Positions 24,557 to 63,135 of a stretch of DNA of 63,135 nt are shown piece after piece (the first letter of the stretch is position 1; each line of letters begins with the position of its first letter). A program made the position numbers and the translations under genes. Under the pieces are notes generated by a model that worked only from the letters and a program-made list of their open reading frames with translations, was not told the DNA's origin and ran no database searches. Location of the stretch: NCBI GenBank assembly GCA_016946835.1, contig JACVTC010000279.1, positions 1-63,135 of the forward strand, written 5' to 3'. Source of the DNA: Neocallimastix lanati (nom. inval.). Its lineage: Eukaryota > Neocallimastigomycota > Neocallimastigomycetes > Neocallimastigales > Neocallimastigaceae.

Positions 24557-24568
24557 TTAGGGGTTAGG
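24557..24568 (+). repeat. Interstitial telomeric tract 1
   Basis: TTAGGGGTTAGG directly followed by TTTTAAAC, the head of element A1. Same strand orientation as the terminal telomere. Confidence 0.88.
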
Positions 24569-25234
24569 TTTTAAACGTTATAATTTTATTTAATAAAATT
24601 AATCAAAATAGTTAATACATTATTAATGTATATATAATTTAAGAAAAATCATTATTGATTTTCAAGAAGTTTAATTATTAAACTATTCTAGCGACTATTA
24701 TTATTTTAAACAAATAATAATAGAAAATAAGATTTTTATTTTAGATATTAAAATCTATTCTAAGATTTTTAAACTATTCTATTTGTAACAAAGAATTCTA
24801 TACTATTCTAGAGAATTATTATTAAGAAAATAATAATAATTATAGCAAGCGAATAATAACTTTAAATATTAAGTAATTATTATTGTAAAATAATAATTAA
24901 TACAATCTTTAAGAATTAATATTATTATAAAAATAATAATTAATACATGAGTTTATAATTATTATGAGAAATAATAATTAATACATGAGTTAATAAATAA
25001 TACATTTTAAAATAGAAAATTATTATTATTATGAAAATAATAATAATTAATACATGATTTTATAGAAGATTATTATTATGAGAAATAATAATCAAACAAT
25101 TTTGATTAAAAAATATTGTTATTATATAAATAATAACAATTATACATAAGTTTATTAAATAGATTATTATAATAATAAAATAATTAATTATTAAATAAAT
25201 AATAATTAATTAAAAGTATTGTTAATTATTATAA

Positions 25235-25680
25235 CAATCATAGAGAATAAAGAAAATACATCCCAAGAAGGTAAGGTCGGAGAACCGAGAACCAAAAAAA
25301 GGGATCCAAAGAATCCAGAATAACCCAAAGAATAGACAAGAGAACTAAAAGACAAGAACTCTGAATCAAAGGAGTACCCTGGAGAATAAGCAAACGAGAA
25401 TCCAACAACCAATCAAGTAACCAGAAGAATAACCGAAAGAGAATCCAGCAAACCAACAAAGAGTAAACCGGAGAGTTCAGCAAGACAACAGAAATCCTGA
25501 AAACCAAAAGGAACCAAAAAATCATTCCAAAAGGAAACCGGAGAGATTACATTCCAGTAATCAAAAGTGAGAACCGGAGTTTAAATCAAAAAGAGTCCAG
25601 CTAACAAAAGTGTCAACTGGAAGAGTTTAAAGACATTCCAGAAAACAGGTTAAAAAACCTGAATTCTGGGCGAATTATTT
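25235..25680 (+). other. Purine-rich, GC-richer conserved block of element A (copy 1)
   Basis: About 445 bp with far more G and C than its surroundings and a strong strand bias: A and G dominate, T is scarce on +. It has recurring words: AACCGGAG (three times), TCCAG preceded by AA/AT/AG (five times), GAGAATCC and CAAAAGGAACC. By eye it is identical in all three A copies. Minus-strand frames of 68 and 95 codons exist but overlap each other and are F/L/S-rich, as expected from the skew; the + strand has repeated stops. Coding is not supported. It may be an RNA-producing unit, promoter or protein-binding array. Confidence 0.6.
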
Positions 25681-26219
25681 AAATATATTTTATTTTATTT
25701 TGATATAATGAATATTGCAAACGAATACTCATTAATACGGAAAAAATATTTTAAAAAAAAACAAAAGATATTTATACTCTAAATTTCTTTATTATTAAAA
25801 AAATAAAACAAAATATTATAAAATAAAACAAAATATTATAGGTCCACTTTTAATTTACATTTTAATACAAAGGGATTTATTCTTTTATTTAAAATAATTT
25901 ATTTATATTAATAAAATAAAATAAAATAAAAAAACGGATTCATAAAAATTTATTTGTTTTTAAAATAATTTATTTATTATTTTGTTTTATCAAAGGGATG
26001 ATGCAAATATAAAAACAATATAATTATAAAACTATTATTTTAAACAATATTTAAAAATAAATAAATAATGACAATAAACAATAGAACAAACGCTTTTATT
26101 TTATATAATATAAATTTTTAATTAATAATTTCAAATAATTTCGTAAAACTAAATTAAAATTATTTTTTAAAATTTAAAACTGATTTAAAAGTAATTAATT
26201 TTATATAAGTTTTTCATAT

Positions 26220-26349
26220 TTTATAAATTTAAAAAAAAATAATATATATATATATATATATTTTTTTTTTTTGCTTTGCTTCTTTTTTTTCTTTTTTTTT
26301 TTTTTCTTTTTTTTTTTTTTTTTGGTTATATAGTAATAAAAATCTAATC

Positions 26350-26380
<31 letters not shown>
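26220..26380. repeat. TA / poly-T / poly-A low-complexity tract of element A
   Basis: (TA)n, then T-runs interrupted by GCTTTGCTTC and single C, then GGTTATATAGTAATAAAAATC and poly-A. Present in A1, A2 (about 55700-55885) and A3 (about 57655-57815) with different run lengths. A2 has a duplicated GCTTTGCTTC block. Confidence 0.8.
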
Positions 26381-27129
26381 TTTAAATAATAATAATTTAA
26401 ATATTAAACAAAAACTAATAAATAAAATATTTTAATATAGTTATTTAAAAATTAATAATTAATTAAATTTCATAATTAAATATTAATAAATTATAGTTAT
26501 AATACAATGAAAATAGCATTAAAAAAAATACTATTTGTTATTTATAAATTAAACATTAATCCAATCAATATATATTAATATAAATATTAAAATTATCATA
26601 TTAAAATGAAAATTTTGTATAAATTTTATTATTAGTTATATATATTGATATTTTGGTATTTTTTAGGTATTATATTTATTATCTATTATATAATTTATTT
26701 TATTATTTATAATTTTAATAAATGTTTATTATTATTTATGATTCTTTAATATTTATAATTTTAATAAACGTTAATAATTATTTATTTATGATTCTTTAAT
26801 TTATAATTTTAAAAAACGTTAATAATTATTTATTTATGATTCTTTAATTTATAACTTTTAATTATTTTTTTTTTAATAATTATTTTTAAAAATAAAAAAT
26901 GGGTTATCCATATTTTAAAGTAAAACTTTTTTAAAATAAATTTAAGACATTTAAAATTATAAGGTCTTTAATAAAAAAAAGATAGTTATACTCATTTCAT
27001 GACCTTTTTTTAAATAAATAATTTTTGAAAAAAAATTAATTAATTTACATATAATAAAAAAATACTTCTTCCCATAATGTTTAATTTTTTTTATTTTATT
27101 TAATTTTTTTATTTTATTTTTTTTTTTTT
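26381..27129. other. AT-rich part of element A1, no gene seen
   Basis: Matches 57815-58420 in A3. It contains a short tandem repeat (TTATTTATGATTCTTTAATT, three times near 26735-26855) that is present in fewer copies in A3. Confidence 0.5.
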
Positions 27130-28288
27130 TAATAAAAATGAAAGAAAGAAAAAACCATAATAAAAAATATTATTTTTTCTATCTTTCTAAAATTTAGCCT
27201 TTTAATAAGCAAAAAAAGGATAACAAAAAAAAATTCTTATATTCTTTTATTTTTTTTTCCTTTCTTTCTTTCTTTCGTATTTTTTTTTAAATAAAAAACA
27301 TATATATTATTGTTTTTAATTTTCTAAAATTTTAGCCTTTTACAACTAAAAAAAGAAAAAAAAATTCATCTCCTCCCTCTCATCACTTTTTTTTTATTTT
27401 TATTTTATTTTATTCTTTAAAAAAAATAATTAAAAATAAAAATAAAAAATTAAAATAAAAATGAAGGAAAAATATTTTTTCTTTTTATCTTTCTAAAATA
27501 GAAAAAAAAAATTTCCTTCTTCCATTTCATCATTTTTTAATTTTTTTTATTTTTATTTTTATTTTATTTTTTTTTAAAAATAATTTAAAATAAAAATAAT
27601 AAAAAAATTAATAAAAAAAAAAAAAAAAAAAAAAATATTTATTTCTTTTATCTTTCTAAAGTAGAAAAAAAAAAAGAAAAAAATTTCCCTCTTCCTTTCA
27701 TCATTTTTTAATTTAATTTATTTTTTTTTAAAAAATAATTTAAAATAAAAATAAAAAAAAAAAAATAAAAAAAAAAAGAAAGAAAAAAGAAAAATATTAT
27801 TTCGTTTATCTTTCTAAAATAAAAAAAAAAAAAAAAAGAAAAAAATTCCCCTCTTCCTTTCATCATTTTTTAATTTTTTTTTTTTTAATTTTATTTTATT
27901 TTATTTTTAAAATAAAAATAAAAAAAAAAAATAAAAAAAAAAAAAAAAGAAAGAAAAAAGAAAAATATTTATTTCTTTTATTTTTCTAAAATAGAAAAGA
28001 AAAAAGAAAAAATTCCCCTCTTCCTTTCATCATTTTTTAATTTTTTTTTTATTTTTATTTTTATTTTATTTTTAAAATAAAATAATTTAAAATAAAAATA
28101 AAAAAAAATTAAAAAAAAAAAAGAAAGAAAGAAAGAAAGAAAAATATTTATTTCTTTTATTTTTCTAAAATAGAAAAAAAAAAAAAGAAAAAATTCCCCT
28201 CTTCCTTTCATCATTTTTTAATTTTTTTTTTTTATTTTTATTTTTATTTTATTTTTAAAATAAAATAATTTAAAATAAAAATAAAAAA

Positions 28289-28328
<40 letters not shown>

Positions 28329-28560
28329 AAGAAAGAAAAATATTTATTTCTTTTATTTTTCTAAAATAGAAAAAAAAGAAAAAGAAAAATTTTCCCCTCT
28401 TCCTCTCAACATTTTTTAATTTTTTTTTTTTTATTTTTATTTTTATTTTATTTTTAAAATAAAATAATTTAAAATAAAAATAATAAAAAAAATTAATAAA
28501 AAAAAAAAAGAAAGAAAGAAAGAAAAATATTTATTTCTTTTATCTTTCTAAAGTTAAACT
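27130..28560. repeat. About 175-bp tandem repeat of element A1
   Basis: Unit order: TATTTCTTTTATCTTTCTAA, A-run with GAAA, TTCCCCTCTTCCTTTCATCA, T-run, TTTTATTTTTAAAATAAAAT, A-run, and GAAAGAAAGAAAA. About seven to eight units with variable homopolymers. Each unit can fold on its TTTTAAAATAAAA part. A3 (58430-59739) carries the same type of array. Confidence 0.85.
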
Positions 28561-28720
28561 TTTTACAAAGTAAAAAGCTTGCAATAAGAAAAAAAAAATT
28601 AAAAAAAAAAATAAATATTATCTATGCACCAAAAATAATTATTATCCCAAAAAAAAACCCACAATCAAAAATTTTATTTCGCTATTTAAAATTTTAATAA
28701 TTATATAATTTTATTTTATT

Positions 28721-28754
<34 letters not shown>

Positions 28755-29400
28755 CCCATCACATAGATAAAAAACCAAAAAAAATGACCACCCCCTTAGC
28801 AAAAGCGGGTTTTATTTGTCAAAGTAGAAAAATTTTTCTATTTAAAAATCGATTGGTCCAAAAAAATTTAAATTTTTAATTTAATTATAGATTTATATTA
28901 AATTAATTATAAAATAAAATTTCGGATATGCCATTTTTTTAAAAACTTAATTTTTTAAATTTTTTAATCAAAATTTAATTTTAAAGCTGAAAAGAAAAAA
29001 CTTTTTTTTTTTTTTTAATTATTATATTAATATATAGATAAAAAATAAATATAAAATATTAATGAACAATATTTAATTATAGTTTATTTTAGAGTACATT
29101 AGATGATTAATTTTTTTAAGGAATAAAAAAAAATAAAAATAAATACAAATATTATTTATGCTAAAAAATAAAATCAAATAGTATTTTATTAAACACAATA
29201 TAATTAATCTACATTTAGGATTATAAAAATATTTAAATCTTTAACTATAAAAATTATTAAATAATTAAAAAATAAAATAATATCTAATGTACATAACCAC
29301 GAATAAATTATATAAAAATAATTAATAAGAAATTAACAATTAAAATAATTTATAAATATATATATTTTTTTATTTTATTATTTTTTTATTTAATTTTTTT
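28561..29400. other. AT-rich region with poly-T, no gene seen
   Basis: A 35-base poly-T at about 28720-28755 and a small GC-richer patch (GACCACCCCCTTAGCAAAAG at about 28786). Nothing else. Confidence 0.4.
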
Positions 29401-29404
29401 TTTT

Positions 29405-29765
29405 TTGTAGCATTTATTTATTATTTATTATTTATTATTTAATTATTTATTTATTATTTATTATTTATTATTTATTATTTATTATTTAATTATTTAATTA
29501 TTTATTATTTATTATTTATTATTTATTATTTATTATTTATTATTTATTATTTATTATTTATTATTTATTATTTAATTATTTAATTATTTAATTATTATTT
29601 ATTTATTATTTATTATTTATTATTTAATTATTTATTATTTATTATTTATTATTTTTTATTTTTTATTACTTATTTATTACTTATTATTTAATTATTTATT
29701 ATTTATTATTTTTATTTATTATTTTTATTTATTTTTTTATTTATTATTTATTATTTATTTATATA
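29405..29765. repeat. TTATT/TTATTTA microsatellite
   Basis: Irregular tandem (TTATTTA)n and (TTTAATTA)n for about 360 bp. Confidence 0.9.
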
Positions 29766-29984
29766 TAATTTTTATTTACTTATTTCTTTTTTTATTTTAT
29801 TAAAAAAAAAGGAAAAGAATAAATTATTATAAATAAAAAAAATAAAATATATATTTAAAATTAATATTAAATATTATTATTTTATTTTATAAAAAAAATA
29901 AAAATATATCTTTAAAATTAAATAAAATATTAAATATATATTTGATTTAATTTATGATACATTTTGAAATACAACTTTCTCTTT

Positions 29985-30690
29985 AGAAATTTTTAGGTCA
30001 AAAAAATTTTTTTTGGTTATTGAAAAATTTAGGGTCAAAGAATTTTTTAGGTCAAAAATTTTTTAGGTCAAAAAATTTTTTTGGGTTATTGAAAAATTTA
30101 GGGTCAAAGAATTTTTTAGGTCAAAAAATTTTTAGGTCAAAAAATTTTTTTGGGTTATTGAAAAATTTAGGGTCAAAGAATTTTTTTGGGTTATTGAAAA
30201 ATTTAGGGTCAAAGAATTTTTTAGGTCAAAGAATTTTTTAGGTCAAAAAATTTTTTGGGTTATTGAAAAATTTAGGGTCAAAGAATTTTTTTGGGTTATT
30301 GAAAAAATTTAGGGTCAAAGAATTTTTTAGGTCAAAAAATTTTTAGGTCAAAAAATTTTTTTGGGTTATTGAAAAATTTAGGGTCAAAGAATTTTTTTGG
30401 GTTATTGAAAAATTTAGGGTCAAAGAATTTTTTAGGTCAAAAATTTTTTGGGTCAAAGAATTTTTTTGGGTTATTGAAAAATTTAGGGTCAAAGAATTTT
30501 TTTGGGTTATTGAAAAATTTAGGGTCAAAGAATTTTTTAGGTCAAAAAATTTTTTTGGGATATTGAAAAATTTAGGGTCAAAGAAAATTTAGAGTCAAAA
30601 AATTTTAGGTCAAAAAATTTTTTTGGGTTATTGAAAAATTTAGGGTCAAAGAAGATTTAAGGTCAAAGAAATTTTTTGGGTTATTGAAAT
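29985..30690. repeat. GGGTTATTGAAAAATTTAGG minisatellite
   Basis: Two interleaved modules: a 36-bp GGTTATTGAAAAATTTAGGG-TCAAAGAATTTTTTTG and a 17-bp GGTCAAAAAATTTTTTA, in irregular order, about 25 modules. Both strands are partly open (LKNLGSKNF on +, TLNFSITQKN on -), which is a periodicity effect. GGGTTA occurs in each long module but the unit is not telomeric. Confidence 0.92.
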
Positions 30691-31474
30691 TAGTGGATAT
30701 ATAAAATATAAGTAAAATTAATAATAATAATCAATAAATATTTATATTATATTTTGATAAAAAAAGTAATAAATGTAAATAAATAAAATAAAATGTTATT
30801 TATTATTTTATTATTTTTATTTCAAGAGGTACATAACTTTTAATATTATTACTATTTTTTATTATTCATAATTATTATTAATAAGATGAATATTTATTTA
30901 AATATTAATTATTAAATATTCATTCTTTAATAAAATAAACATTTAAGAAATATTATTTAAAAGATATATTATTTATTGTACTACCATTTTTATTTCAAGA
31001 ATTATTAAGCTTTAAATATTATATATATTTATTTAGTATATTAATATTTATTACTAACAATATTTTTATAAAGGATTTTGAAGATTAATATTTAATTAAT
31101 CATTTAGTATTCAAAACATAATAAAATAAACCTATAATGATAAAAAAGAAAATATAAAAGTACTTTTTTATAAAAAAAATAATGTCAAAACTTTATAATA
31201 ACATAAAATATGTATTTTAATAATTTTTATAAAAAATAAATAAAATTAAATAATTTTTCTTAATTATTAATAATAATTTTTTAAATATAATATTTTTTTA
31301 TATATATTTAAATATTAAATATTTTTTAAATCAAAAATAAAAAGAATAAATAATTAAAGGTCACTCACTTTACAAATAATTTCTTTTTTATAGTAATTAA
31401 ATGATATATTTTTATAGTTCTAATATAATTATTTTAAAAGAAACTAAATTATATATTTCATTTTTTTTATTTAT

Positions 31475-31517
<43 letters not shown>

Positions 31518-32130
31518 GATTTGAGACTTAGATATTTTATTTAAAAATTAATAAAGATTCAAATTTTATTTAAATAATATAATAAAAAGGCATATAATAA
31601 TATATTATTTGAAAATACAATATTACTTGTTTATGAAAAATTAAAATTTATTTTTTTTTTTTTTGTTTGTTTTTTTGTTTTTTTGTTTTTGTTTTTTTTT
31701 TTTTTTTTTTATTTGTTTGTATGTGTGTGTGTGTGTTTCAAAAAATAGTGTTGAGATTTAATGGTTTACAATTATTGAAATAACTAACGAACAAATTAAA
31801 ATTATATTATAAGATGCTTATCAATTAAATGTATATTTCATTAAATGTTGAACCCTTCACAACTAAATTTTCAAGATATTCAAATATTTGTTTAAACTTA
31901 GGGTTATTTTTATTAAATTATTAATAATACATATAGATAGTTTTGAGATTTGAAGTTTTATAACTTTTTAAATTTTTAACGAATAAATGAAAATAATATA
32001 TCACTAGATGCACAATAAATAGGGTTTTATTATATTAAACGTTGAATTCATTGCAACTAAATTTTAAAATTATTCAAGTATTTTTTTAATTTTTTCAAAA
32101 ATTTTATAATTAATTTTAATTATTAACCCT
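30691..32130. other. AT-rich region with poly-A, T-rich and (TG)n tracts
   Basis: A poly-A run of about 35 (31480-31514), TTTTTG runs and (TG)n at 31640-31738, and two related blocks at about 31740 and 31930 (GTTGAACCC/GTTGAATTC with CACAACTAAATTTTCAAG-like words). No gene. Confidence 0.5.
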
Positions 32131-32139
32131 GAAATAATA

Positions 32140-35100
32140 TTGTATATACGATGAAATAATTCATGAAATAGTAAACCTAGAATAAAATAAATTATATCAT
32201 TAGAAAAGCTTTTTTTTTCGCTAATTTTAAATGAAAATAAATTGTTTGTAACTTCATTTTTAAAAAAAAAAAAATTTTTTTTTTTTTTCAGTATAATTTT
32301 TATAATAAATTTTTATAATAAGCATGGATCAAGTTGGATATATAGGTTGAAATAACTCATGAAATAGTAAACCTAGAATAAAATATATTATATCATTAGA
32401 AATGCATTTGTTTGCGTTTACTTAAAATGAATATAAATTATTTGTAACTTCATTTTTAAAAAAAAAATTTTTTTTTTTTTTTTTTCAGTAAAATTTTTAT
32501 AATAAATTTTTATAATAAGCATGGATCAAGTTGGATATATAGGTTGAAATAACTCATGAAATAGTAAACCTAGAATAAAATATATTATATCATTAGAAAT
32601 GTATTTGTTTGAGCTTACTTAAAATGAATATAAATTATTTGTAACTTCATTTTTAAAAAAAAAATTTTTTTTTTTTTTTCAGTAAAATTTTTATAATAAA
32701 TTTTTATAATAATCATGAATCAAGTTGGAAATATGGGTTGAAATAACTCATTAAGTAGAAAACCTAGAATAAAATAAATATATCATTAGAAATGCATTTG
32801 TTTGCGTTTACTTAAAATGAAAATAAATTATTTGTAACTTCATTTTTAAAAAAAAATTTTTTTTTTTTTTTTTTAGTAAAATTTTTATAATAAATTTTTA
32901 TAATAAGCATGGATCAAGTTGGAAATATGGGTTGAAATAACTCATGAAATAATAATCTTAAAATAAAAATAAATATATCATTAGAAAAGCTTTTGTTTGC
33001 ACTTACTTAAAATGAAAATAAATTATTTATAACTTCATTTTTAAAAAAAAAATTTTTTTTTTTTTTTTTCAGTAAAATTTTTATAATAAATTTTTATAAT
33101 AAGCATGGATCAAGTTGGATATATAGGTTGAAATAACTCATGAAATAGTAAACCTAGAATAAAATATATTATATCATTAGAAATGTATTTGTTTGAGCTT
33201 ACTTAAAATGAATATAAATCATTTGTAACTTCATTTTTAAAAAAAAAATTTTTTTTTTTTTTTTCAGTAAAATTTTTATAATAAATTTTTATAATAAGCA
33301 TGGATCAAGTTGGAAATATGGGTTGAAATAACTCATGAAATAATAATCTTAAAATAAAAATAAATATATCATTAGAAAAGCATTTGTTTTCGCTTACTTA
33401 AAATGAAAATAAATTATTTGTAACTTCATTTTTAAAAAAATTTTTTTTTTTTTTTTTTTTCAGTATAATTTTTATAATAAATTTTTATAATAAGCATGGA
33501 TCAAGTTGGATATATAGGTTGAAATAACTCATGAAATAGTACTCTTAGAATAAAATATATTATATCATTAGAAAAGCACATATTTGCGCTTACTTAAAAT
33601 GAAAATATATTATTTGTAACTTCATTTTTAAAAAAAATTTTTTTTTTTTTTTTCAGTAAAATTTTTATAATAAATTTTTATAATAATCATGAATCAAGTT
33701 GGAAATATGGATTGAAATAACTCATGAAATGGTAAACATAGAATAAAATATATTATATCATTAGAAATGCATTTGTTTTCGCTTACTTAAAATGAATATA
33801 AATTATTTGTAACTTCATTTTTAAAAAAAAATTTTTTTTTTTTTTTTTCAGTAAAATTTTTATAATAAATTTTTATAATAAGCATGGATCAAGTTAGAAA
33901 TATGGGTTGAAATAACTCATGAAATGGTAAACATAGAATAAAATATATTATATCATTAGAAATGCATTTGTTTTCGCTTACTTAAAATGAATATAAATTA
34001 TTTGTAACTTCATTTTTAAAAAAAAAAATTTTTTTTTTATTTTTTACTAAAATTTTTATAATAAATTTTTATAATAATCATGAATCAAGTTGGAAATATG
34101 GGTTGAAATAACTCATGAAGTAGTAAACCTAGAATAAAATAAATTATATCATAAGAAAAGCATTTGTTTTCGCTAATTTTAAATGAATATAAATTATTTG
34201 TAACTTCATTTTTTAAAAAAAAAAAATTTTTTTTTTTTTTTCAGTAAAATTTTTATAATAAATTTTTTTAATAAGCATGGATCAAGTTGGAAATATGGGA
34301 TGAAATAACTCATGAAATAGTAAACCTAGAATAAAATATATTATATCATTAGAAAAGCTTTTTTTTCGCTAATTTTAAATGAAAATAAATTATTTGTAAC
34401 TTCATTTTTAAAAAAAAATTTTTTTTTTTTTTTTCAGTATAATTTTTATAATAAATTTTTATAATAAGCATGGATCAAGTTGGATATATAGGTTGAAATA
34501 ACTCATGAAATGGTAAACTTATAATAAAATATATTATATCATTAGAAATGCATTTGTTTGCACTTACTTAAAATGAAAATAAATTATTTGTAACTTCATT
34601 TTTAAAAAAAAAATTTTTTTTTTATTTTTTAGTAAAATTTTTATAATAAATTTTTATAATAATCATGAATCAAGTTGGAAATATGGGTTGAAATAACTCA
34701 TGAAATAATAATCTTAAAATAAAAATAAATATATCATTAGAAAAGCATTTGTTTTCGCTTACTTAAAATGAATATAAATTATTTGAAACTTCATTTTTAA
34801 AAAAAAAATTTTTTTTTTATTTTTTACTAAAATTTTTATAATAAATTTTTATAATAATCATGAATCAAGTTAGAAATATGGGTTGAAATAACTCATGAAG
34901 TAGTAAACCTAGAATAAAATATATTATATCATTAGAAAAGCATTTGTTTTCGCTTACTTAAAATGAATATAAATTATTTGTAACTTCATTTTTAAAAAAA
35001 AAAAAAATTTTTTTTTTTTTTCAGTATAATTTTTATAATAAATTTTTATAATAATCATGAATCAAGTTGGAAATATGGATTGAAATAACTCATGAAATAA

Positions 35101-36850: not shown

Positions 36851-37125
36851 AAAATGAAAATATCATTAAATATTTAATATTAGAAATATTTAATTTATAA
36901 AAATTTAAACTCTTAATTATTAATATTTAAAGCTGATAATTAAAAAAAAATACCTATTCATATGTAATAAAATATTATTTATAATTAGATATATAAAAAA
37001 AATATAAATTTAAATATTAAATAAATTTAATTTAAAATATTAATGAATAAATATTAATTATATAAATAATTAAATATTTTAATAAAAAAAAATATTTTTA
37101 TTTTATAGAATAAAATAAAGCATAT

Positions 37126-50670: not shown

Positions 50671-50686
50671 GGGTTAGGGGTTAGGT
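50671..50686 (+). repeat. Interstitial telomeric tract 2
   Basis: GGGTTAGGGGTTAGG followed by TTTTAAATTC, the head of element B1. Confidence 0.88.
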
Positions 50687-51016: not shown

Positions 51017-51030
51017 GGGTTAGGGTTAGG
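51017..51030 (+). repeat. Interstitial telomeric tract 3
   Basis: GGGTTAGGGTTAGG then TTTTAAATTC. Confidence 0.88.
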
Positions 51031-53481
51031 TTTTAAATTCTTTTATTTATTTAAGATTTACAAAGTATTACATGTATTTGATAAATATAATAATTACAAG
51101 AATAAAATATAATAATATAAAAATTATTTAAAGTATTTACTAAATATAACTATTATAAGAATTAATAAGTAATTTGAAATATTAAATATTATTACTAAGT
51201 TAAAATTAATAAAGATTTAACTAACTAATAAAATTATTTAATATTAAAATATTTAAAGTTTGATAAAAAATATAAATTTAAAGTTATTAAAATTTTGATC
51301 AAAAATAAATTTAAAGTTATTAAAGTTTTGATCAAAAGTAAATTAAAGTATTTAAAGTTTTGATTAAAAAGTAAAACGGACATACTAAATATGTCCATTA
51401 TCTAAAAAAGGAAAATATTCTAATTAACTATATCTAAGAGAAAATTTATGAAAATTTAACTAACTTAAAATTCGTATACTGAAATCCCATGAGGAATTTC
51501 AATATCTTGACTATCTCTAAAAGGAAATATTAAAATAACTATTATTAAGTATTAATATCTATAAGTAAATATATCTAAAATAGATAATTATTATAAGTAA
51601 ATAATTATATATGATAATTATCTAAGTATTATATAAGATATTAATCTAAGTATATAACTATAAAAAGTAATAATAAAAATATATAATTATATAATTATTA
51701 AAATAAATAATTATATAAATGAATAAAATATATAATTATAAATGAAATATAATTATATAATAAAATAAAAAATAAAAAATATAATTATTAAAATAAATAA
51801 TTATATTAGATAATAATAAAAATATATAATTATAAGAAAATAATTATATAAGTGAATAAAATATAATAAAATATATAATTATTATAAGCAAATAATTATA
51901 TAAGTGAATAAAATATATAATTATTATAAGCAAATAATTATATTAGTGAAAAAAAAAAAAAAATATATATAATTATAAAAGATATATAAGTATATAATAT
52001 AATAATAAAAATATATAATTATTAAAAGAAATAATTATATAAATAAATAATAAAATATATAATTATAAAAAGTATATAATTATATAAGTAAGTAAAAAGT
52101 ATATAACTATTAAAAGAAATAATTATATAAGATAATGAAAAAATATATAATTATTTAAAAATAAATAATTATATAAGTAAATAAAAGTATATAATTATAA
52201 AAGATATATAATTATATAAGTAAATAAAAGTATATAATTATAAAAGATATATAATTATATAAGTAAATAAAAAGTATATAATTATTTTAAGCAAATAATT
52301 ATATAAGATAATGATAAAGAAAGTATATAATTATTTAAAATAAATAATTATATAAGTAAATAATAAAAATATATAATTATAAAAGGTATATAATTATATA
52401 AGATAATAAAAAGTATATAATTATTAAAAGAAATAATTATATAAGAAAAAAGAGAAGTATATATAATTATTTAAAGAAAATAATTATATAAGAAATTAAA
52501 AAATATATAATTATAAAAGATATATAATTATATAATAAAATAAAATAAAAGTATATAATTATTAAAAGAAATAATTATATAAGATAATAAAAAATGTATA
52601 ATTACTTAAAGTAAATAATTATACAAGAAAAGAAAAGAAGTATATATAATTATTAAAAGAAATAATTATATAAGATAATAATAAAAAGTATATAATTATA
52701 AAAATATAAAATTATATAAAATGATAAAAGTTTATATAAAATTATATAAAATGATAAAAATTTATATAAAATTATATAAAATGATAAAAGTTTATAATTA
52801 TTATCTAAAGATAATAACTATAATAAAATAAGAGTTAATAATTAAAAAATAAAGGGTAAATAAAGTAAAGTAATTATTAACCAAAGTAAATAAAATAAAT
52901 AAAAAAAGGTAAGGTTGAAAGAATAATAAAGGTTATAAAAATATAATTATTATAATGAAAAAAAATAAAAGGTATTATATAAATATTTAAATTATTATGA
53001 AGACATAATAAAATAAGATATATATATATAGAGATAATTTATAAAAGATAATTTATAAAAGATAAAAATAAAAATAAAATAAAAAAAAGAATAAAAGAAA
53101 ATAAAAAATAAAATAATAATTATTCTTATGTTATTTATATATAATTAAATAAAAAGATTAAAAAAAAATAAATCTTTTAATAATTTATATATAAAGGGAA
53201 CACAAGAAAAATTTTTAATATAAATTTTTTAAATATAAATATAAAAGAAGAATTATAATAAAAATTATAGAATTATATTAAAAGTAAAATAAAAGGATAA
53301 CTATTGTAAAAGTTAAAAGGGTAAATAAAGAAAGGAAAAATTATAAAACTATATAATTAATAAAAATCTAATATGTAAATAAATAAAAAAAATATATTTT
53401 ATACTAAATAAAAACTATATATAAAATAATTTAATTCTTTAATAATAAATAATAAAATAATAATAAAAATTATTATAAAAA
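51031..53481 (+). repeat. Subtelomeric element B2
   Basis: 2.45 kb, near-identical to B3. After a unique-looking head (ATTACATGTATTTGATAAAT, then GTATACTGAAATCCCATGAG at about 51473) it is mostly the ATAATTAT palindrome array (about 51600-52800) and A-rich DNA. It ends at ATTATAAAAATT where B3 continues ATTTATTAAAAAATT, so B2 is right-truncated. No coding frame. Confidence 0.92.
51600..52800. repeat. ATATATAATTAT palindromic repeat array in B2
   Basis: Units of about 45-55 bp: AAGTATATAATTATTAAAAG-AAATAATTATATAAGATAAT. Two ATAATTAT half-palindromes per unit can pair. The counterpart in B3 is about 60310-61520. Confidence 0.8.
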
Positions 53482-53492
53482 TTAGGGTTAGG
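53482..53492 (+). repeat. Interstitial telomeric tract 4
   Basis: TTAGGGTTAGG then TTTTAAACTT, head of element C. Confidence 0.85.
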
Positions 53493-53994
53493 TTTTAAAC
53501 TTTGTAATTTTTATTAAAATTATTCGATTAGATAATACATTAATTAATGTATATATAAATTATATGAAATCATGACTACATGATTTTAAGTAAATTAATA
53601 CATTTTTAGTAAAAAAATAAAAGTTCGATAAAGTAAAAAAAAAGTATATATCTATAAAGTTTAGAATTTTAAGGAAGAGAAAAATTATTCTTTTAAAGTA
53701 AATGAATAATAAAAGTAATTCTAATAAAAGAATTTTTGTAATTATCTAAAAGAATATAAAGTTTTTATAATCTAGTAGAATATTTTAAAATAAAATTTAT
53801 AAAGAAATTAAATTTTAGTTTGTTCGTAAAGTAAGTATATTTAATTAAAACTGAAATCGTATGAAATATATTTATTCATTGATATATTTCATAGATTCAA
53901 TAATATCCTCAGAACTATAATCCATAGGATTTAATGGATTAATAGTTGTACTGAGAATATTAGGGGAATTGGATATTATAGTGTCACTATACAT
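53493..53994 (+). repeat. Subtelomeric element C (diverged relative of A)
   Basis: The head TTTTAAACTTTGTAATTTTT-ATTAAAATTATTCGATTAGA-TAATACATTAATTAATGTAT-ATATAAATT is clearly related to the A head (TAATACATTATTAATGTATATA) but diverged. About 500 bp remain before tract 5. Single copy in this window. Confidence 0.8.
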
Positions 53995-54026: not shown

Positions 54027-55970
54027 TTTTAAACGTTATAATTTTATTTAATAAAATTAATCAAAATAGTTAATACATTATTAATGTATATATAATTTAA
54101 GAAAAATCATTATTGATTTTCAAGAAGTTTAATTATTAAACTATTCTAGCGACTATTATTATTTTAAACAAATAATAATAGAAAATAAGATTTTTATTTT
54201 AGATATTAAAATCTATTCTAAGATTTTTAAACTATTCTATTTGTAACAAAGAATTCTATACTATTCTAGAGAATTATTATTAAGAAAATAATAATAATTA
54301 TAGCAAGCGAATAATAACTTTAAATATTAAGTAATTATTATTGTAAAATAATAATTAATACAATCTTTAAGAATTAATATTATTATAAAAATAATAATTA
54401 ATACATGAGTTTATAATTATTATGAGAAATAATAATTAATACATGAGTTAATAAATAATACATTTTAAAATAGAAAATTATTATTATTATGAAAATAATA
54501 ATAATTAATACATGATTTTATAGAAGATTATTATTATGAGAAATAATAATCAAACAATTTTGATTAAAAAATATTGTTATTATATAAATAATAACAATTA
54601 TACATAAGTTTATTAAATAGATTATTATAATAATAAAATAATTAATTATTAAATAAATAATAATTAATTAAAAGTATTGTTAATTATTATAACAATCATA
54701 GAGAATAAAGAAAATACATCCCAAGAAGGTAAGGTCGGAGAACCGAGAACCAAAAAAAGGGATCCAAAGAATCCAGAATAACCCAAAGAATAGACAAGAG
54801 AACTAAAAGACAAGAACTCTGAATCAAAGGAGTACCCTGGAGAATAAGCAAACGAGAATCCAACAACCAATCAAGTAACCAGAAGAATAACCGAAAGAGA
54901 ATCCAGCAAACCAACAAAGAGTAAACCGGAGAGTTCAGCAAGACAACAGAAATCCTGAAAACCAAAAGGAACCAAAAAATCATTCCAAAAGGAAACCGGA
55001 GAGATTACATTCCAGTAATCAAAAGTGAGAACCGGAGTTTAAATCAAAAAGAGTCCAGCTAACAAAAGTGTCAACTGGAAGAGTTTAAAGACATTCCAGA
55101 AAACAGGTTAAAAAACCTGAATTCTGGGCGAATTATTTAAATATATTTTATTTTATTTTGATATAATGAATATTGCAAACGAATACTCATTAATACGGAA
55201 AAAATATTTTAAAAAAAAACAAAAGATATTTATACTCTAAATTTCTTTATTATTAAAAAAATAAAACAAAATATTATAAAATAAAACAAAATATTATAGG
55301 TCCACTTTTAATTTACATTTTAATACAAAGGGATTTATTCTTTTATTTAAAATAATTTATTTATATTAATAAAATAAAATAAAATAAAAAAACGGATTCA
55401 TAAAAATTTATTTGTTTTTAAAATAATTTATTTATTATTTTGTTTTATCAAAGGGATGATGCAAATATAAAAACAATATAATTATAAAACTATTATTTTA
55501 AACAATATTTAAAAATAAATAAATAATGACAATAAACAATAGAACAAACGCTTTTATTTTATATAATATAAATTTTTAATTAATAATTTCAAATAATTTC
55601 GTAAAACTAAATTAAAATTATTTTTTAAAATTTAAAACTGAATTAAAAGTAATTAATTTTATATAAGTTTTTCATATTTTATAAATTTAAAAAAAAAATA
55701 ATATATATATATATATATATATTTTTTTTTTTGCTTTGCTTCTTTTTTTTCTTTTTTTTTTTTTTTTTTTTTTTTTTTCTTTTTTTTTGCTTTGCTTCTT
55801 TTTTTTTCTTTTTTTTTTTCTTTTTTTTTTTTTGGTTATATAGTAATAAAAATCTAATAAAAAAAAAAAAAAAAAAAAAAAAAAGTTTTTTAAATAATAA
55901 TAATTTAAATATTAAACAAAAACTAATAAATAAAATATTTTAATATAGTTATTTAAAAATTAATAATTAA
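54027..55970 (+). repeat. Subtelomeric element A2
   Basis: First about 1.94 kb of element A. Truncated in TTAATAATTAATT, where A1 and A3 continue AAATTTCATAATTAAATATT. Shares GAATTAAAAG with A3 against GATTTAAAAG in A1, so A2 and A3 are the closer pair. Confidence 0.92.
54693..55138 (+). other. Purine-rich conserved block of element A (copy 2)
   Basis: Same as 25235-25680 by eye, at the identical distance from the element head. Confidence 0.6.
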
Positions 55971-55982
55971 TTAGGGGTTAGG
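55971..55982 (+). repeat. Interstitial telomeric tract 6
   Basis: TTAGGGGTTAGG then TTTTAAACG, identical to tract 1. Confidence 0.88.
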
Positions 55983-56648
55983 TTTTAAACGTTATAATTT
56001 TATTTAATAAAATTAATCAAAATAGTTAATACATTATTAATGTATATATAATTTAAGAAAAATCATTATTGATTTTCAAGAAGTTTAATTATTAAACTAT
56101 TCTAGCGACTATTATTATTTTAAACAAATAATAATAGAAAATAAGATTTTTATTTTAGATATTAAAATCTATTCTAAGATTTTTAAACTATTCTATTTGT
56201 AACAAAGAATTCTATACTATTCTAGAGAATTATTATTAAGAAAATAATAATAATTATAGCAAGCGAATAATAACTTTAAATATTAAGTAATTATTATTGT
56301 AAAATAATAATTAATACAATCTTTAAGAATTAATATTATTATAAAAATAATAATTAATACATGAGTTTATAATTATTATGAGAAATAATAATTAATACAT
56401 GAGTTAATAAATAATACATTTTAAAATAGAAAATTATTATTATTATGAAAATAATAATAATTAATACATGATTTTATAGAAGATTATTATTATGAGAAAT
56501 AATAATCAAACAATTTTGATTAAAAAATATTGTTATTATATAAATAATAACAATTATACATAAGTTTATTAAATAGATTATTATAATAATAAAATAATTA
56601 ATTATTAAATAAATAATAATTAATTAAAAGTATTGTTAATTATTATAA

Positions 56649-57094
56649 CAATCATAGAGAATAAAGAAAATACATCCCAAGAAGGTAAGGTCGGAGAACC
56701 GAGAACCAAAAAAAGGGATCCAAAGAATCCAGAATAACCCAAAGAATAGACAAGAGAACTAAAAGACAAGAACTCTGAATCAAAGGAGTACCCTGGAGAA
56801 TAAGCAAACGAGAATCCAACAACCAATCAAGTAACCAGAAGAATAACCGAAAGAGAATCCAGCAAACCAACAAAGAGTAAACCGGAGAGTTCAGCAAGAC
56901 AACAGAAATCCTGAAAACCAAAAGGAACCAAAAAATCATTCCAAAAGGAAACCGGAGAGATTACATTCCAGTAATCAAAAGTGAGAACCGGAGTTTAAAT
57001 CAAAAAGAGTCCAGCTAACAAAAGTGTCAACTGGAAGAGTTTAAAGACATTCCAGAAAACAGGTTAAAAAACCTGAATTCTGGGCGAATTATTT
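56649..57094 (+). other. Purine-rich conserved block of element A (copy 3)
   Basis: Same as 25235-25680 by eye, at the identical distance from the element head. Confidence 0.6.
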
Positions 57095-57659
57095 AAATAT
57101 ATTTTATTTTATTTTGATATAATGAATATTGCAAACGAATACTCATTAATACGGAAAAAATATTTTAAAAAAAAACAAAAGATATTTATACTCTAAATTT
57201 CTTTATTATTAAAAAAATAAAACAAAATATTATAAAATAAAACAAAATATTATAGGTCCACTTTTAATTTACATTTTAATACAAAGGGATTTATTCTTTT
57301 ATTTAAAATAATTTATTTATATTAATAAAATAAAATAAAATAAAAAAACGGATTCATAAAAATTTATTTGTTTTTAAAATAATTTATTTATTATTTTGTT
57401 TTATCAAAGGGATGATGCAAATATAAAAACAATATAATTATAAAACTATTATTTTAAACAATATTTAAAAATAAATAAATAATGACAATAAACAATAGAA
57501 CAAACGCTTTTATTTTATATAATATAAATTTTTAATTAATAATTTCAAATAATTTCGTAAAACTAAATTAAAATTATTTTTTAAAATTTAAAACTGAATT
57601 AAAAGTAATTAATTTTATATAAGTTTTTCATATTTTATAAATTTAAAAAAAAAATAATA

Positions 57660-57690
<31 letters not shown>

Positions 57691-57707
57691 TTTTGCTTTG
57701 CTTCTTT

Positions 57708-57745
<38 letters not shown>

Positions 57746-57773
57746 TTTGGTTATATAGTAATAAAAATCTAAT

Positions 57774-57817
<44 letters not shown>

Positions 57818-58429
57818 TTTAAATAATAATAATTTAAATATTAAACAAAAACTAATAAATAAAATATTTTAATATAGTTATTTAAAAATTAATAATTAAT
57901 TAAATTTCATAATTAAATATTAATAAATTATAGTTGTAATACAATGAAAATAGCATTAAAAAAATACTATTTGTTATTTATAAATTAAACATTAATCCAA
58001 TCAATATATATTAATATAAATATTAAAATTATCATATTAAAATGAAAATTTTGTATAAATTTTATTATTAGTTATATATATTGATATTTTGGTATTATTT
58101 AGATATTATATTTATTATCTATTATATAATTTATTTTATTATTTATAATTTTAATAAATGTTTATTATTATTTATGATTCTTTAATTTATAATTTTTAAT
58201 TATTTTTTTATTTTTTTTTTTTTTTTTTTAATAACTATTTTTTAAAAATAAAAAATGGGTTATCCATATTTTAAAGTAAAATTATTTTAAAATAAATTTA
58301 AGACGTTCAAAATTATAAGGTCTTTAATAAAAAAAAAGATAGATATATTCATTTCATGACCTTTTTTTAAATAAATAACTTTTTAATTATTTTTTATTTT
58401 ATTTAATTTTTTTTTTTTTAATAAAAATG

Positions 58430-59739
58430 AAAGAAAGAAAAAACCATAATAAAAAATATTATTGTTTCTATCTTTCTAAAATTTAGCCTTTTACTAAGTA
58501 AAAAAAGCGTAACAAAAAAATTCTTATATTCTTATATTCTTATATTCTTGTATTTTTTTTTTTTTTTTTTTTTATTTTTTATTTTTTTCTTTCTTTCTTA
58601 TTTTTTTTAAATTAAAAAATATATATATAATATTGTTTTTAATTTTATAAATTTTAGCCTTTTACAATTAAAAAAAGAAAAAAAAAATTCTTCTCCTCCT
58701 TTTCATCACTTTTTTTTTTAGTTTTATTTTATTTTATTCTTTAAAAAAAATAATATAAAAAAATAATTTTAAATAAAAAAGAAAGAAAAATAATTATTTC
58801 TTTTTATCTTTCTAAAATAGAAAAAAAAATTCCCCTTTCTTCTCAACATCTTTTAATTTTATTTCATTTTATTTTATTTTTTTTTTATTATTTAAAATAA
58901 AAATAATAAAAAAAAATTAATAAAAAAAAAAAAAAGAAAGAAAGAAAAATATTTATTTCTTTTATCTTTCTAAAGAAGAAAAAAAAAAAAAAGAAAAAAA
59001 AAAGAAAAAAATTTCCCCTCTTCCTCTCATCATTTTTTAATTCTCTCTTTTTTTTTTTTTTTATTTTATTTTCTTTTTAAAATAAAATAATTTAAAATAA
59101 AAATAGAAAAAAAAAAATAAAAAAAATAAAAAGAAAAAAGAAAAAAATTATTTCGTTTATCTTTCTAAAATAGAAAAAAAAAAAAAAAAAAAAAAAAAAA
59201 AGAAAAAAATTCCCTCTTACTTTCATCATTTTTTAATTTTTTTTTTATTTTTATTTTATTTTTCTAAAGTAGAAAAAAAAAAAAAAAAATTCCCCTCTTC
59301 CTCTCATCATTTTTTAATTCTTTTTTTATTTTTATTTTATTTTTTTTTTTTTAAAAATAAAATAATTTAAAATAAAAATAAAAAAAAAATAAAAAAAAAA
59401 AAAAGACAAAAGAAAAATATTATTTCGTTTATCTTTCTAAAATAGAAAAAAAAAATCCCCTCTTACTTTCATCTTTTTTTAATTTTTTTTTTTTTTATTT
59501 TTATTTTAAATTATTTTATTTTTAAAATAAAATATTTTAAAATAAAAATAATAAAAAAATTAATAAAAAAAAAAAAAAAAAAAAAAGAAAGAAAAATATT
59601 TATTTCTTTTATTTTTCTAAAATAGAAAAAAAAAAAAAAAAAAAAATTTCCCCCTCTTCCTCTCATCATTTTTTAATTTTTTTTTTATTTTTATTTTTAT
59701 TTTATTTTTAAAATAAAATAATTTAAAATAAAAATAATA
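58430..59739. repeat. About 175-bp tandem repeat of element A3
   Basis: Landmarks TATTTCTTTTATCTTTCTAA and CCCCTCTTCCTCTCATCATT recur about six times with variable spacing. One unit (about 59220-59330) is internally deleted. Confidence 0.82.
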
Positions 59740-59754
59740 GGGGTTAGGGTTAGG
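59740..59754 (+). repeat. Interstitial telomeric tract 7
   Basis: GGGGTTAGGGTTAGG then TTTTAAATTC of B3. Confidence 0.88.
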
Positions 59755-62663
59755 TTTTAAATTCTTTTATTTATTTAAGATTTACAAAGTATTACATGTA
59801 TTTGATAAATATAATAATTACAAGAATAAAATATAATAATATAAAAATTATTTAAAGTATTTACTAAATATAACTATTATAAGAATTAATAAGTAATTTG
59901 AAATATTAAATATTATTACTAAGTTAAAATTAATAAAGATTTAACTAACTAATAAAATTATTTAATATTAAAATATTTAAAGTTTGATAAAAAATATAAA
60001 TTTAAAGTTATTAAAATTTTGATCAAAAATAAATTTAAAGTTATTAAAGTTTTGATCAAAAGTAAATTAAAGTATTTAAAATTTTGATTAAAAAGTAAAA
60101 CGGATATACTAAATATGTCCATTATCTAAAAAAGGAAAATATTCTAATTAACTATATCTAAGAGAAAATTTATGAAAATTTAACTAACTTAAAATTCGTA
60201 TACTGAAATCCCATGAGGAATTTCAATATCTTGACTATCTCTAAAAGGAAATATTAAAATAACTATTATTAAGTATTAATATCTATAAGTAAATATATCT
60301 AAAATAGATAATTATTATAAGTAAATAATTATATATGATAATAATCTAAGTATTATATAAGATATTAATCTAAGTATATAACTATAAAAAGTAATAATAA
60401 AAATATATAATTATATAATTATTAAAATAAATAATTATATAAATGAATAAAATATATAATTATAAATGAAATATAATTATATAATAAAATAAAAAATAAA
60501 AAATATAATTATTAAAATAAATAATTATATTAGATAATAATAAAAATATATAATTATAAGAAAATAATTATATAAGTGAATAAAATATAATAAAATATAT
60601 AATTATTATAAGCAAATAATTATATAAGTGAATAAAATATATAATTATTATAAGCAAATAATTATATTAGTGAAAAAAAAAATATATAATTATAAAAGAT
60701 ATATAAGTATATAATATAATAATAAAAATATATAATTATTAAAAGAAATAATTATATAAATAAATAATAAAATATATAATTATAAAAAGTATATAATTAT
60801 ATAAGTAAGTAAAAAGTATATAACTATTAAAAGAAATAATTATATAAGATAATGAAAAAATATATAATTATTTAAAAATAAATAATTATATAAGTAAATA
60901 AAAGTATATAATTATAAAAGATATATAATTATATAAGTAAATAAAAGTATATAATTATAAAAGATATATAATTATATAAGTAAATAAAAAGTATATAATT
61001 ATTTTAAGCAAATAATTATATAAGATAATGATAAAGAAAGTATATAATTATTTAAAATAAATAATTATATAAGTAAATAATAAAAATATATAATTATAAA
61101 AGGTATATAATTATATAAGATAATAAAAAGTATATAATTATTAAAAGAAATAATTATATAAGAAAAAAGAGAAGTATATATAATTATTTAAAGAAAATAA
61201 TTATATAAGAAATTAAAAAATATATAATTATAAAAGATATATAATTATATAATAAAATAAAATAAAAGTATATAATTATTAAAAGAAATAATTATATAAG
61301 ATAATAAAAAATGTATAATTACTTAAAGTAAATAATTATACAAGAAAAGAAAAGAAGTATATATAATTATTAAAAGAAATAATTATATAAGATAATAATA
61401 AAAAGTATATAATTATAAAAATATAAAATTATATAAAATGATAAAAGTTTATATAAAATTATATAAAATGATAAAAATTTATATAAAATTATATAAAATG
61501 ATAAAAGTTTATAATTATTATCTAAAGATAATAACTATAATAAAATAAGAGTTAATAATTAAAAAATAAAGGGTAAATAAAGTAAAGTAATTATTAACCA
61601 AAGTAAATAAAATAAATAAAAAAAGGTAAGGTTGAAAGAATAATAAAGGTTATAAAAATATAATTATTATAATGAAAAAAAATAAAAGGTATTATATAAA
61701 TATTTAAATTATTATGAAGACATAATAAAATAAGATATATATATATAGAGATAATTTATAAAAGATAATTTATAAAAGATAAAAATAAAAATAAAATAAA
61801 AAAAGAATAAAAGAAAATAAAAAATAAAATAATAATTATTCTTATGTTATTTATATATAATTAAATAAAAAGATTAAAAAAAAATAAATCTTTTAATAAT
61901 TTATATATAAAGGGAACACAAGAAAAATTTATAATAATTTATATATAAAGGGAACACAAGAAAAATTTTTAATATAAATTTTTTAAATATAAATATAAAA
62001 GAAGAATTATAATAAAAATTATAGAATTATATTAAAAGTAAAATAAAAGGATAACTATTGTAAAAGTTAAAAGGGTAAATAAAGAAAGGAAAAATTATAA
62101 AACTATATAATTAATAAAAATCTAATATGTAAATAAATAAAAAAAATATATTTTATACTAAATAAAAACTATATATAAAATAATTTAATTCTTTAATAAT
62201 AAATAATAAAATAATAATAAAAATTATTATAAAAATTATTTATTAAAAAATTATTAAATTATTTTATATAAGAGAAAAAAAAATAAAATATTAAAAATTA
62301 AATGAATTAAAAAGTGCACTTTTAAAATAATTATTTAACATTATTTGTTTTTATTCTTTTAAAATAGTTTTAATAATTATTTTAAAAGTGTAAATAAAAA
62401 AAAGTCAATAAAAAATTTTTTAATAACAATAAATAAAAATATAAAAAAAAATATAATTATTTAGAGTTATCAAAAATAATGTAGTACAAAAAATAAAAAT
62501 AAATTTTTTTGTACCGCAAAATATATATAATAATTAATAAATAGATAAATATGAATTACCGTTATGATATAAAAAGATTTATAATAAATATAATTATTTA
62601 ATAAAAAAAAAATAATTAAATAATAAACCATAATGTATTTTGGATTATACATTAGGAGAAAAA
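59755..62663 (+). repeat. Subtelomeric element B3 (most distal)
   Basis: 2.9 kb, matches B2 over its whole length and extends about 420 bp further (62240-62663) to the terminal telomere. Differences from B2 include a 38-bp tandem duplication around AGGGAACACAAGAAAAATTT (61911 and 61949) and a shorter A-run at about 60676. The last part (TTTTTGTACCGCAAAATATA at about 62505) is seen only here. The 60-codon minus frame at 62470-62652 is not supported. Confidence 0.9.
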
Positions 62664-63135
62664 GGGTTAGGGGTTAGGGGTTAGGGTTAGGGGTTAGGGT
62701 TAGGGGTTAGGGTTAGGGGTTAGGGGTTAGGGGGGGTTAGGGTTAGGGTTAGGGGTTAGGGTTAGGGGTTAGGGTTAGGGGTTAGGGGTTAGGGGTTAGG
62801 GTTAGGGTTAGGGTTAGGGTTAGGGGTTAGGGGTTAGGGGTTAGGGGTAGGGTTAGGGGTTAGGGGTTAGGGGGGTTAGGGGTTTAGGGGGTTAGGGGTT
62901 AGGGTTAGGGTTAGGGGTTTAGGGGTTAGGGTTAGGGGTTTAGGGTTAGGGGTTAGGGGTTAGGGGTTAGGGGTTAGGGTTAGGGGTTAGGGGGTTAGGG
63001 GGGGGGGGTTAGGGGTTAGGGTTAGGGTTAGGGTTAGGGTTAGGGTTAGGGGTTAGGGGTTAGGGGTTAGGGGTTAGGGTTAGGGGTTAGGGTTAGGGGT
63101 TAGGGGTTAGGGTTAGGGGTTAGGGGTTAGGGTTA
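62664..63135 (+). repeat. Chromosome-end telomere, mixed TTAGGG / TTAGGGG
   Basis: About 472 bp, running to the window end. TTAGGG and TTAGGGG repeats are intermingled in no fixed order, with a few TTTAGGGG, GGGGTAGGG, GGGGGGTTAGGG and one G-run of about 10. Orientation (G-rich strand to the right) fits a right-hand chromosome end. Confidence 0.97.

What the first reader, a model, noticed from the sequence alone, without database searches (positions are those of the whole stretch)
24557..63135. Subtelomere built of elements that all start at the same base right after a telomeric tract
Seven internal telomeric tracts (24557, 50671, 51017, 53482, 53995, 55971, 59740) all have the orientation of the terminal telomere. 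Each is followed at once by TTTTAAA(C/T) and the head of an A, B or C element. Left ends are fixed; right ends differ in every copy and are cut by the next tract. This is what cycles of end truncation, telomere healing and re-extension by recombination within telomeric repeats would leave, like a stack of Y'-type elements but with three modules. A telomere-targeted mobile element (compare MoTeRs in Magnaporthe) is the alternative, but no reverse transcriptase is present.
Basis: partly seen in the sequence, partly recalled or inferred. Interest (0 to 1): 0.88.

Follow-up and report, generated by a model that had tools for sequence, protein, structure and literature searches.

The report
Telomere-targeted LINE retrotransposon arrays
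The end of this chromosome, probably from an anaerobic gut fungus, is stacked with broken copies of selfish genetic elements that attach, always by the same end, directly behind telomere repeats, and longer copies elsewhere in the same genome still carry the copying enzyme.

Summary
Seven internal telomeric tracts in the window, oriented like the terminal telomere, each end in GGGTTAGG and are followed at once by TTTTAAA and an A, B or C head. Genome-wide GGTTAGGTTTTAAA occurs 183 times against 2 for the reversed control; with one G more, 0 times. The mechanism offered is half right. Long C- and B-headed copies on other contigs encode a reverse transcriptase with an EEP (apurinic-type) endonuclease, on the strand whose RNA 3' end abuts the tract. 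A is a relative of C without such an ORF. So the fixed heads are most likely retrotransposon 3' ends and the variable right ends 5' truncations: two lineages of telomere-targeted non-LTR retrotransposons and a non-autonomous partner, probably in an anaerobic gut fungus. Junctions shared between chromosome ends, and microhomology at truncation points, show that truncation, telomere healing and recombination act as well. It works like MoTeR/FoTeR, but those have a restriction-like endonuclease; the endonuclease type here is that of TRAS/SART, on an isolated RT branch. New variant of a known kind.

The parts
24556..24568 (+). telomeric tract 1 (13 bp)
24569..26377 (-). element A1, 3' part (A-specific; head at 24569; RNA strand is minus)
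26378..50668 (-). element A1, long AT-rich 5' region; up to 49887 it is collinear with the region upstream of the RT gene in the long C-type copy of contig C126
50669..50685 (+). telomeric tract 2 (17 bp)
50686..51016 (-). element B1, truncated to about 331 bp
51017..51030 (+). telomeric tract 3 (14 bp)
51031..53481 (-). element B2, truncated to about 2.45 kb
53482..53492 (+). telomeric tract 4 (11 bp)
53493..53993 (-). element C, truncated to about 0.5 kb
53875..53993 (-). last ~39 codons of the 740-aa ORF of family I, by the 100% match of 53485-53995 to C126
53994..54026 (+). telomeric tract 5 (33 bp)
54027..55970 (-). element A2, truncated to about 1.94 kb
55971..55982 (+). telomeric tract 6 (12 bp)
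55983..59737 (-). element A3, truncated to about 3.76 kb, reaches into the region shared with the long C-type copy
59738..59754 (+). telomeric tract 7 (17 bp)
59755..62662 (-). element B3, about 2.91 kb, right end at the recurrent B end (first copy of a 37-bp repeat)
62663..63135 (+). terminal telomere, TTAGGG and TTAGGGG mixed

Best explanation
A, B and C are 5'-truncated copies of telomere-targeted non-LTR (LINE-type) retrotransposons. Family I (C head) and family II (B head) have long copies that encode an EEP endonuclease plus reverse transcriptase, and a second ORF. A is a non-autonomous relative of family I. Shown by sequence: fixed 3' end, fixed telomeric register, orientation of the ORFs, variable truncation at the other end, position next to telomeres. 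Inferred: the element RNA ends in ...TTTAAAA next to CCTAACCC; the 3'-OH of the TTAGGG strand at a chromosome end, or at a nick, primes reverse transcription from that RNA end; synthesis runs outward, often stops early, and telomerase caps the product. Truncation, healing and recombination between ends then reshuffle the arrays.
For: 183 base-exact junctions against 2 in the control, 0 in the next register. 58 of 59 junctions read GGGTTAGG before the head. Family I RT ORF of 1201 aa intact at 5 places, matches given as 100%, RVT_1 E 8.2e-31, N-terminus aligned with LINE EEP endonucleases, hhalign probability 98.2%; closest solved chains are 8c8j and LINE-1 ORF2p. Family II ORF1 of 806 aa and RT ORF of 1483 aa; the end of the RT match lies 4.26-4.29 kb from the B head at 7 places. 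RT genes lie on the strand opposite to TTAGGG, so the RNA 3' end meets the tract. Two families 49% identical in the RT share the same base-exact 3' junction. 10 of 10 telomere-bearing contig ends scored have a junction within 5 kb. Old copies inside contigs carry only about 9-12 bp of telomeric seed.
Against: No EEP family of Pfam was hit by the two RT proteins or two relatives; the endonuclease rests on one profile alignment of 4 against 11 sequences and on motifs. Units of 26-35 kb exist, long for one RNA. Multi-element blocks are shared between ends, so part of the copying is recombination. 8 of 69 heads lack the 14-mer (with two rows added). Truncation with healing gives the same kind of right end. 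No reads, no transcripts, no transposition seen.
Confidence: 0.86

Rival explanations
1. Y'-like stack without recent transposition: ends break, telomerase heals them, and the short new telomere invades an existing TTAGG|TTTTAAA junction on another end and copies all that lies beyond it. The RT genes are passengers.
For: C126 and C666 share a C-A-A block with identical junctions; C177 ends in two copies of an A-A unit. Elements are cut by terminal telomeres. Units up to 35 kb. Microhomology 1.71 against 1.02 in a simulation, n = 35, P about 6e-4, as telomerase priming would leave.
Against: Does not explain why RT ORFs, intact at 5 places for family I, always have their 3' end at the tract, why two families of 49% identity share the same base-exact junction, or single old copies inside contigs with a minimal telomeric seed.
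Confidence: 0.11
2. Assembly joins of repeat-rich ends.
For: Many short contigs (one search gives several lengths under 80 kb), several stretches near contig ends lie in AT repeats, and no reads to check.
Against: The same base-exact junction recurs 183 times, the first 100 listed on 38 contigs, next to different partners, and also in diverged copies inside long contigs.
Confidence: 0.03

Closest known systems
MoTeR1/MoTeR2 (Magnaporthe/Pyricularia oryzae)
   Same: Non-LTR elements behind telomeric tracts, 3' end with telomere repeats, 5' truncation, autonomous and non-autonomous partner sharing the 3' border, short stable tracts, truncation with new telomeres, break-induced copying, interior relics (passages of PMC7367193 and PMC8381367).
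   Different: MoTeR1 has a restriction-like endonuclease (passages of PMC12857005); here an EEP domain, two RT families and a second ORF.
FoTeRs (Fusarium oxysporum)
   Same: 3' ends next to TAACCC repeats, asymmetric junctions read as target-primed reverse transcription, tandem repeats in the 5' region (abstract and passages of PMC12857005).
   Different: Restriction-like endonuclease, group of MoTeR1, Cnl1, SLACS, CRE; elements of 4.3-7.3 kb.
TRAS/SART (Bombyx mori)
   Same: Two ORFs, endonuclease and RT in ORF2, telomere-specific (passages of PMC4700185, PMC7265360). That this endonuclease is of the apurinic type is recalled.
   Different: Cut sites C/T or T/A inside TTAGG, against a junction after TTAGG here; SART copies keep poly(A) tails, here TTTAAAA; at telomeres only full-length copies are reported, here mostly truncated ones. 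RT relation not tested for lack of references.
HeT-A/TART/TAHRE (Drosophila)
   Same: Elements on chromosome ends, 3' end towards the centromere, 5' truncation (recalled).
   Different: There they replace telomerase repeats; here telomeric repeats cap the ends and telomerase exons are found.
Y' elements (budding yeast)
   Same: Stacked subtelomeric units between telomeric tracts, spread by recombination (recalled).
   Different: Y' codes for a helicase and is no LINE (recalled); here long copies code for an EEP-RT protein.

Membership tests
Telomere-targeted non-LTR retrotransposon (functional class) | Reverse transcriptase of non-LTR type in long copies | tested here: met
   RVT_1 in both families; closest solved relatives include LINE-1 ORF2p and R2
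Telomere-targeted non-LTR retrotransposon (functional class) | Fixed 3' end next to telomeric repeats, variable 5' truncation | tested here: met
Telomere-targeted non-LTR retrotransposon (functional class) | Transposes into telomeric DNA | not testable with these tools
   needs isolates, reads or an assay
MoTeR/FoTeR group (restriction-like endonuclease) | Restriction-like endonuclease C-terminal to the RT | tested here: inconclusive
   An EEP domain is N-terminal; no model of the restriction-like domain was run, and a CPxC...H...C motif follows the RT (read)
MoTeR/FoTeR group (restriction-like endonuclease) | Autonomous and non-autonomous members sharing terminal sequence | tested here: met
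   A and the long C-type copy: first 71 bp 98.6% identical, and a shared upstream region
TRAS/SART (R1 clade) | EEP endonuclease N-terminal to the RT, plus ORF1 | tested here: met
   not hit by Pfam's EEP models
TRAS/SART (R1 clade) | RT in the R1 clade | not tested
   No R1, TRAS or SART reference in hand; in the tree both families, an Orpinomyces protein and a metagenome protein form a separate clade (support 1.0) among unnamed LINEs
TRAS/SART (R1 clade) | Insertion between C and T or T and A of the repeat | tested here: not met
   junction is TTAGG|TTTTAAA
Y' elements | Codes for a helicase | tested here: not met
   no helicase among Pfam hits of the 4 element proteins scanned; other frames were not scanned
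Y' elements | Spreads by recombination between ends | tested here: met
   shared blocks and junctions

The most novel reading that the evidence does not exclude
The 8-bp GGGTTAGG in front of the heads is templated by the element RNA itself (3' end ...TTTAAAACCTAACCC), so that these LINEs can start on a broken, telomere-less end and rebuild both a minimal telomeric seed and kilobases of cap: an element-borne chromosome-end healing system beside telomerase, used by two RT lineages and a non-autonomous partner. Hints: 58 of 59 junctions have this seed and most have little more (median 14 bp, against 79-470 bp at the five termini seen), also in single copies inside DNA that matches nothing else in hand; one A head is joined to a poly-T run without a tract, as if the RNA's AAAA end had annealed there.
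Probability: 0.25. Interest if true: 0.82.

Novelty: new variant of a known kind. Interest (0 to 1): 0.64.

Why it matters
The fungal telomere-targeted LINEs in the passages I read (MoTeR, FoTeR and their group) use a restriction-like endonuclease. An EEP-type lineage doing the same job in an early-diverging fungus would be a further independent origin of telomere targeting. The genome holds some 180 base-exact junctions, intact RT genes, non-autonomous partners and old interior copies, so target choice, end healing and recombination could be measured at the same ends in one organism. It also gives a reason why chromosome ends of this genome may assemble badly.

Tried and rejected
(1) RVT_1 over the whole genome: 5028 candidates, 150 scored, swamped by other retroelements; I did not relate the hits to heads. 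(2) Rfam on the window: 0 families at gathering score. (3) Structure prediction of the RT protein to show the endonuclease fold: switched off; a profile alignment was used instead. (4) RNA folding: no unusual structure in the 84-88 nt 3' ends of A, C and B (z -0.13, 1.23, 0.03); the recurrent B right end makes a hairpin (z -3.87). (5) A as a coding element: rejected; the longest frame that is not low-complexity in A2 is 102 aa, and it was not compared with anything. (6) The 12-mer as evidence: rejected as background.
Full report
WHAT IS THERE. The window is G000:C200:1-63135 of a 199-Mb genome in 762 contigs. Its last 473 bp are a terminal telomere of mixed TTAGGG and TTAGGGG. Inwards lie seven telomeric tracts of 11-33 bp in the same orientation, each followed by TTTTAAA and one of three heads: A (24569, 54027, 55983), B (50686, 51031, 59755), C (53493).

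HOW FAR BEYOND CHANCE. GGTTAGGTTTTAAA: 82 + 101 hits; reversed control 2 + 0. GGTTAGGGTTTTAAA: 0. TTAGGTTTTAAA alone is background: 140 + 155 against 232 + 236. Searches with the first 351 bp of B, 374 bp of A and the 502 bp of C scored 40 candidates each, so they give lower bounds; the main hit of nearly every copy begins at the first base of the head, the exceptions being C58 (base 2), C35 (2), C168 (6) and C666:869162 (15). On contigs below C269, where the list is complete, 61 of 69 heads have the 14-mer directly in front; one search printed 61 of 67 because I had left out two C-type rows, both without it. In the sequence I hold there are 62 14-mer junctions. I dropped three as chance (C1:2839614, C9:643406, C67:359424: no head similarity) and kept C65:117688, which only partly resembles B. 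Of the 59, 58 read GGGTTAGG before the head; tracts run from 8 to 33 bp with one of 116, median 14 (the C239 tract is undercounted because of one irregular repeat). Of 46 distinct contexts of exact A, B or C head bodies, found without asking for a tract, 45 have GGGTTAGG. Terminal tracts at the five ends seen: 79 bp (C126), 244 (C57), about 400 (C666), about 440 (C177), 470 (window). Longer interstitial tracts do occur: C57:4915 (116 bp), and a run of four repeats lies about 130-160 bp behind the A head C269:29866.

WHERE. In the listed part (100 of 152 places), ten contigs up to C269 bear four perfect repeats at an end: C57, C126, C131, C141, C177, C185, C191, C197, C200, C269. All 10 have a junction within 5 kb of that end and in the telomere's orientation. 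C212, whose run lies 1.49 Mb from its start, is left out; contigs after C269 were not scored. Copies inside contigs (for instance C1:3776089, C14, C22, C24, C102) have diverged heads behind DNA that matches nothing else in hand, with about 9-12 bp of telomeric seed.

WHAT THE ELEMENTS ARE. The long C-type copy on C126 holds, on the strand opposite to TTAGGG, an ORF of 1201 aa (C126:31139-34738) and, nearer the head, two overlapping frames (374 and 364 aa) that match a 740-aa ORF intact elsewhere. The 1201-aa protein has RVT_1 (E 8.2e-31). Pfam's EEP models do not hit it, but its N-terminus aligns with LINE EEP endonucleases (hhalign probability 98.2%, GDFN and SDH motifs included). Its best solved relatives are 8c8j (named RNA-directed DNA polymerase) and LINE-1 ORF2p. 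Matches over its full length with no stop stand at C126, C175, C299 and twice on C191 (given as 100%). The 740-aa ORF matches over its full length, at 100% and with no stop, at 14 places. B-headed long copies hold a second family: at C297 an ORF1 of 806 aa, then an RT ORF of 1483 aa, 49% identical to family I. The end of its RT match lies 4.26-4.29 kb from the B head at C507, C297, C497, C175, C177, C5 and C126; at C1 4.95 kb and at C58 13.5 kb. A has no such ORF, but its first 71 bp are 98.6% identical to the C126 C-type head and from 26378 on it follows the region just upstream of the C126 RT gene. So A looks like an internally replaced, non-autonomous relative of family I, comparable with MoTeR2. 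The window's C copy keeps only about 39 codons of the 740-aa ORF, which is why a reader of the window alone saw no reverse transcriptase.

HOW IT WORKS (inference). In these long copies the RNA 3' end is the head, on the centromere side, next to CCTAACCC. That is what results when the 3'-OH of the TTAGGG strand primes reverse transcription of the element RNA and synthesis runs towards the chromosome end. Early stops give variable right ends: 53 spacings between neighbouring junctions on 12 contigs (65 of the 100 listed places used) run from 40 bp to 35.2 kb. The two families share TTAGG|TTTTAAA exactly while the rest of their heads aligns poorly, which fits a functional 3' end better than one copied recombination junction.

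WHAT ELSE ACTS ON THE ARRAYS. Truncation and healing: elements are cut by terminal telomeres in the window and on C57, C126, C177 and C666. Of 37 distinct truncation contexts with a longer reference in hand I dropped two (one inside a telomeric array, one doubtful alignment); the other 35 overlap the tract by 1.71 bases on average against 1.02 in a simulation with random breakpoints and registers (P about 6e-4). Recombination: C126 and C666 share a C-A-A block with identical junctions, and C177 ends in two copies of an [A 2.34 kb, A about 0.1 kb] unit. Module exchange: the long C-type copy of C126 is 81-90% identical to four other C copies in the 3' part, 98% to one on C750, while its RT protein match is given as 100% at four other places. 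One B right end recurs at 11 places by exact pattern and in a diverged copy on C97; a long B copy reads through that point into further copies of a 37-bp repeat, and the site can form an RNA hairpin (z -3.87). RT stop, promoter or preferred healing site: I cannot tell.

ODD FEATURES. In family I the ORF1-like gene lies 3' of the RT gene at all five intact RT copies; on C126 that gene is split into two frames. Family II has the usual order. The two ORF1s are related (32-33% over parts). Both families continue upstream into AT-rich tandem repeats. Truncation points lie along the family I region, so it belongs to the copied unit, but whether it is ever in one RNA is unknown. FoTeRs too have repeats in their 5' region.

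ORGANISM. The closest relative with a source name is an Orpsp1 protein (65% identity over 51% of the query); that this code means Orpinomyces is recalled. With 7-21% G+C in 5-kb bins this points to an anaerobic gut fungus; no tool names the genome. Two stretches over the cut-off for the telomerase RNA-binding domain lie at C106 (28.5 and 27.4 bits against 25; the first has stops in its open frame), so telomerase is probably present. In a tree of RT domains both families, that protein and a metagenome protein form one clade (support 1.0) on a long branch.

WHAT IS IN PRINT. Searches for Neocallimastix with telomere (6 papers listed, none on this), Neocallimastigomycota/retrotransposon/telomere (15 of 5,487 listed), telomere-targeting elements with apurinic, TRAS, SART, fungi (12 of 19), anaerobic gut fungi with chromosome-level or telomere (10 of 1,722) and fungal telomere-specific LINEs (20 of 27) listed nothing on such elements in anaerobic fungi. 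The listings are cut and only open-licence papers are held, so this is weak evidence. Papers: PMC12857005 abstract, outline and passages; passages only of PMC7367193, PMC4700185, PMC7265360, PMC8381367, PMC10088271.

VERDICT. Observation confirmed; interpretation partly supported; a telomere-targeted LINE system with an EEP-type endonuclease. Confidence 0.86 in the retrotransposon reading.

Noticed in passing
window 7706-12434, minus strand: ORF of 598 aa (10638-12434) with AAA-ATPase_like and PDDEXK_9 domains, and a second ORF (7706-8482) with PDDEXK_9.
   Followed up: partly
window 15855-16849, plus strand: Two overlapping frames; the second (16313-16849) has a MULE transposase domain, the first no Pfam hit.
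   Followed up: partly
window 21099-24545, minus strand: A run of five minus-strand frames of 156-364 aa that ends just before the first telomeric tract; the two scanned have no Pfam hit.
   Followed up: partly
G000 C57:3626 (L061): An A head joined directly to a long poly-T run, with no telomeric tract.
   Followed up: partly
window 62625-62665; 11 places in the genome: Recurrent right end of B at the first copy of a 37-bp repeat, with an RNA hairpin of z -3.87.
   Followed up: partly
G000 C212:1486026-1486316: Runs of four perfect TTAGGG repeats 1.49 Mb from the contig start, in left-end orientation: possibly an internal telomere relic.
   Followed up: no
window 18633-20796 and about 42500-48000: Long AT-rich tandem arrays, open over hundreds of codons by composition alone.
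   Followed up: no
G000 C106:51156-51495: Two stretches over the cut-off for the telomerase RNA-binding domain.
   Followed up: no
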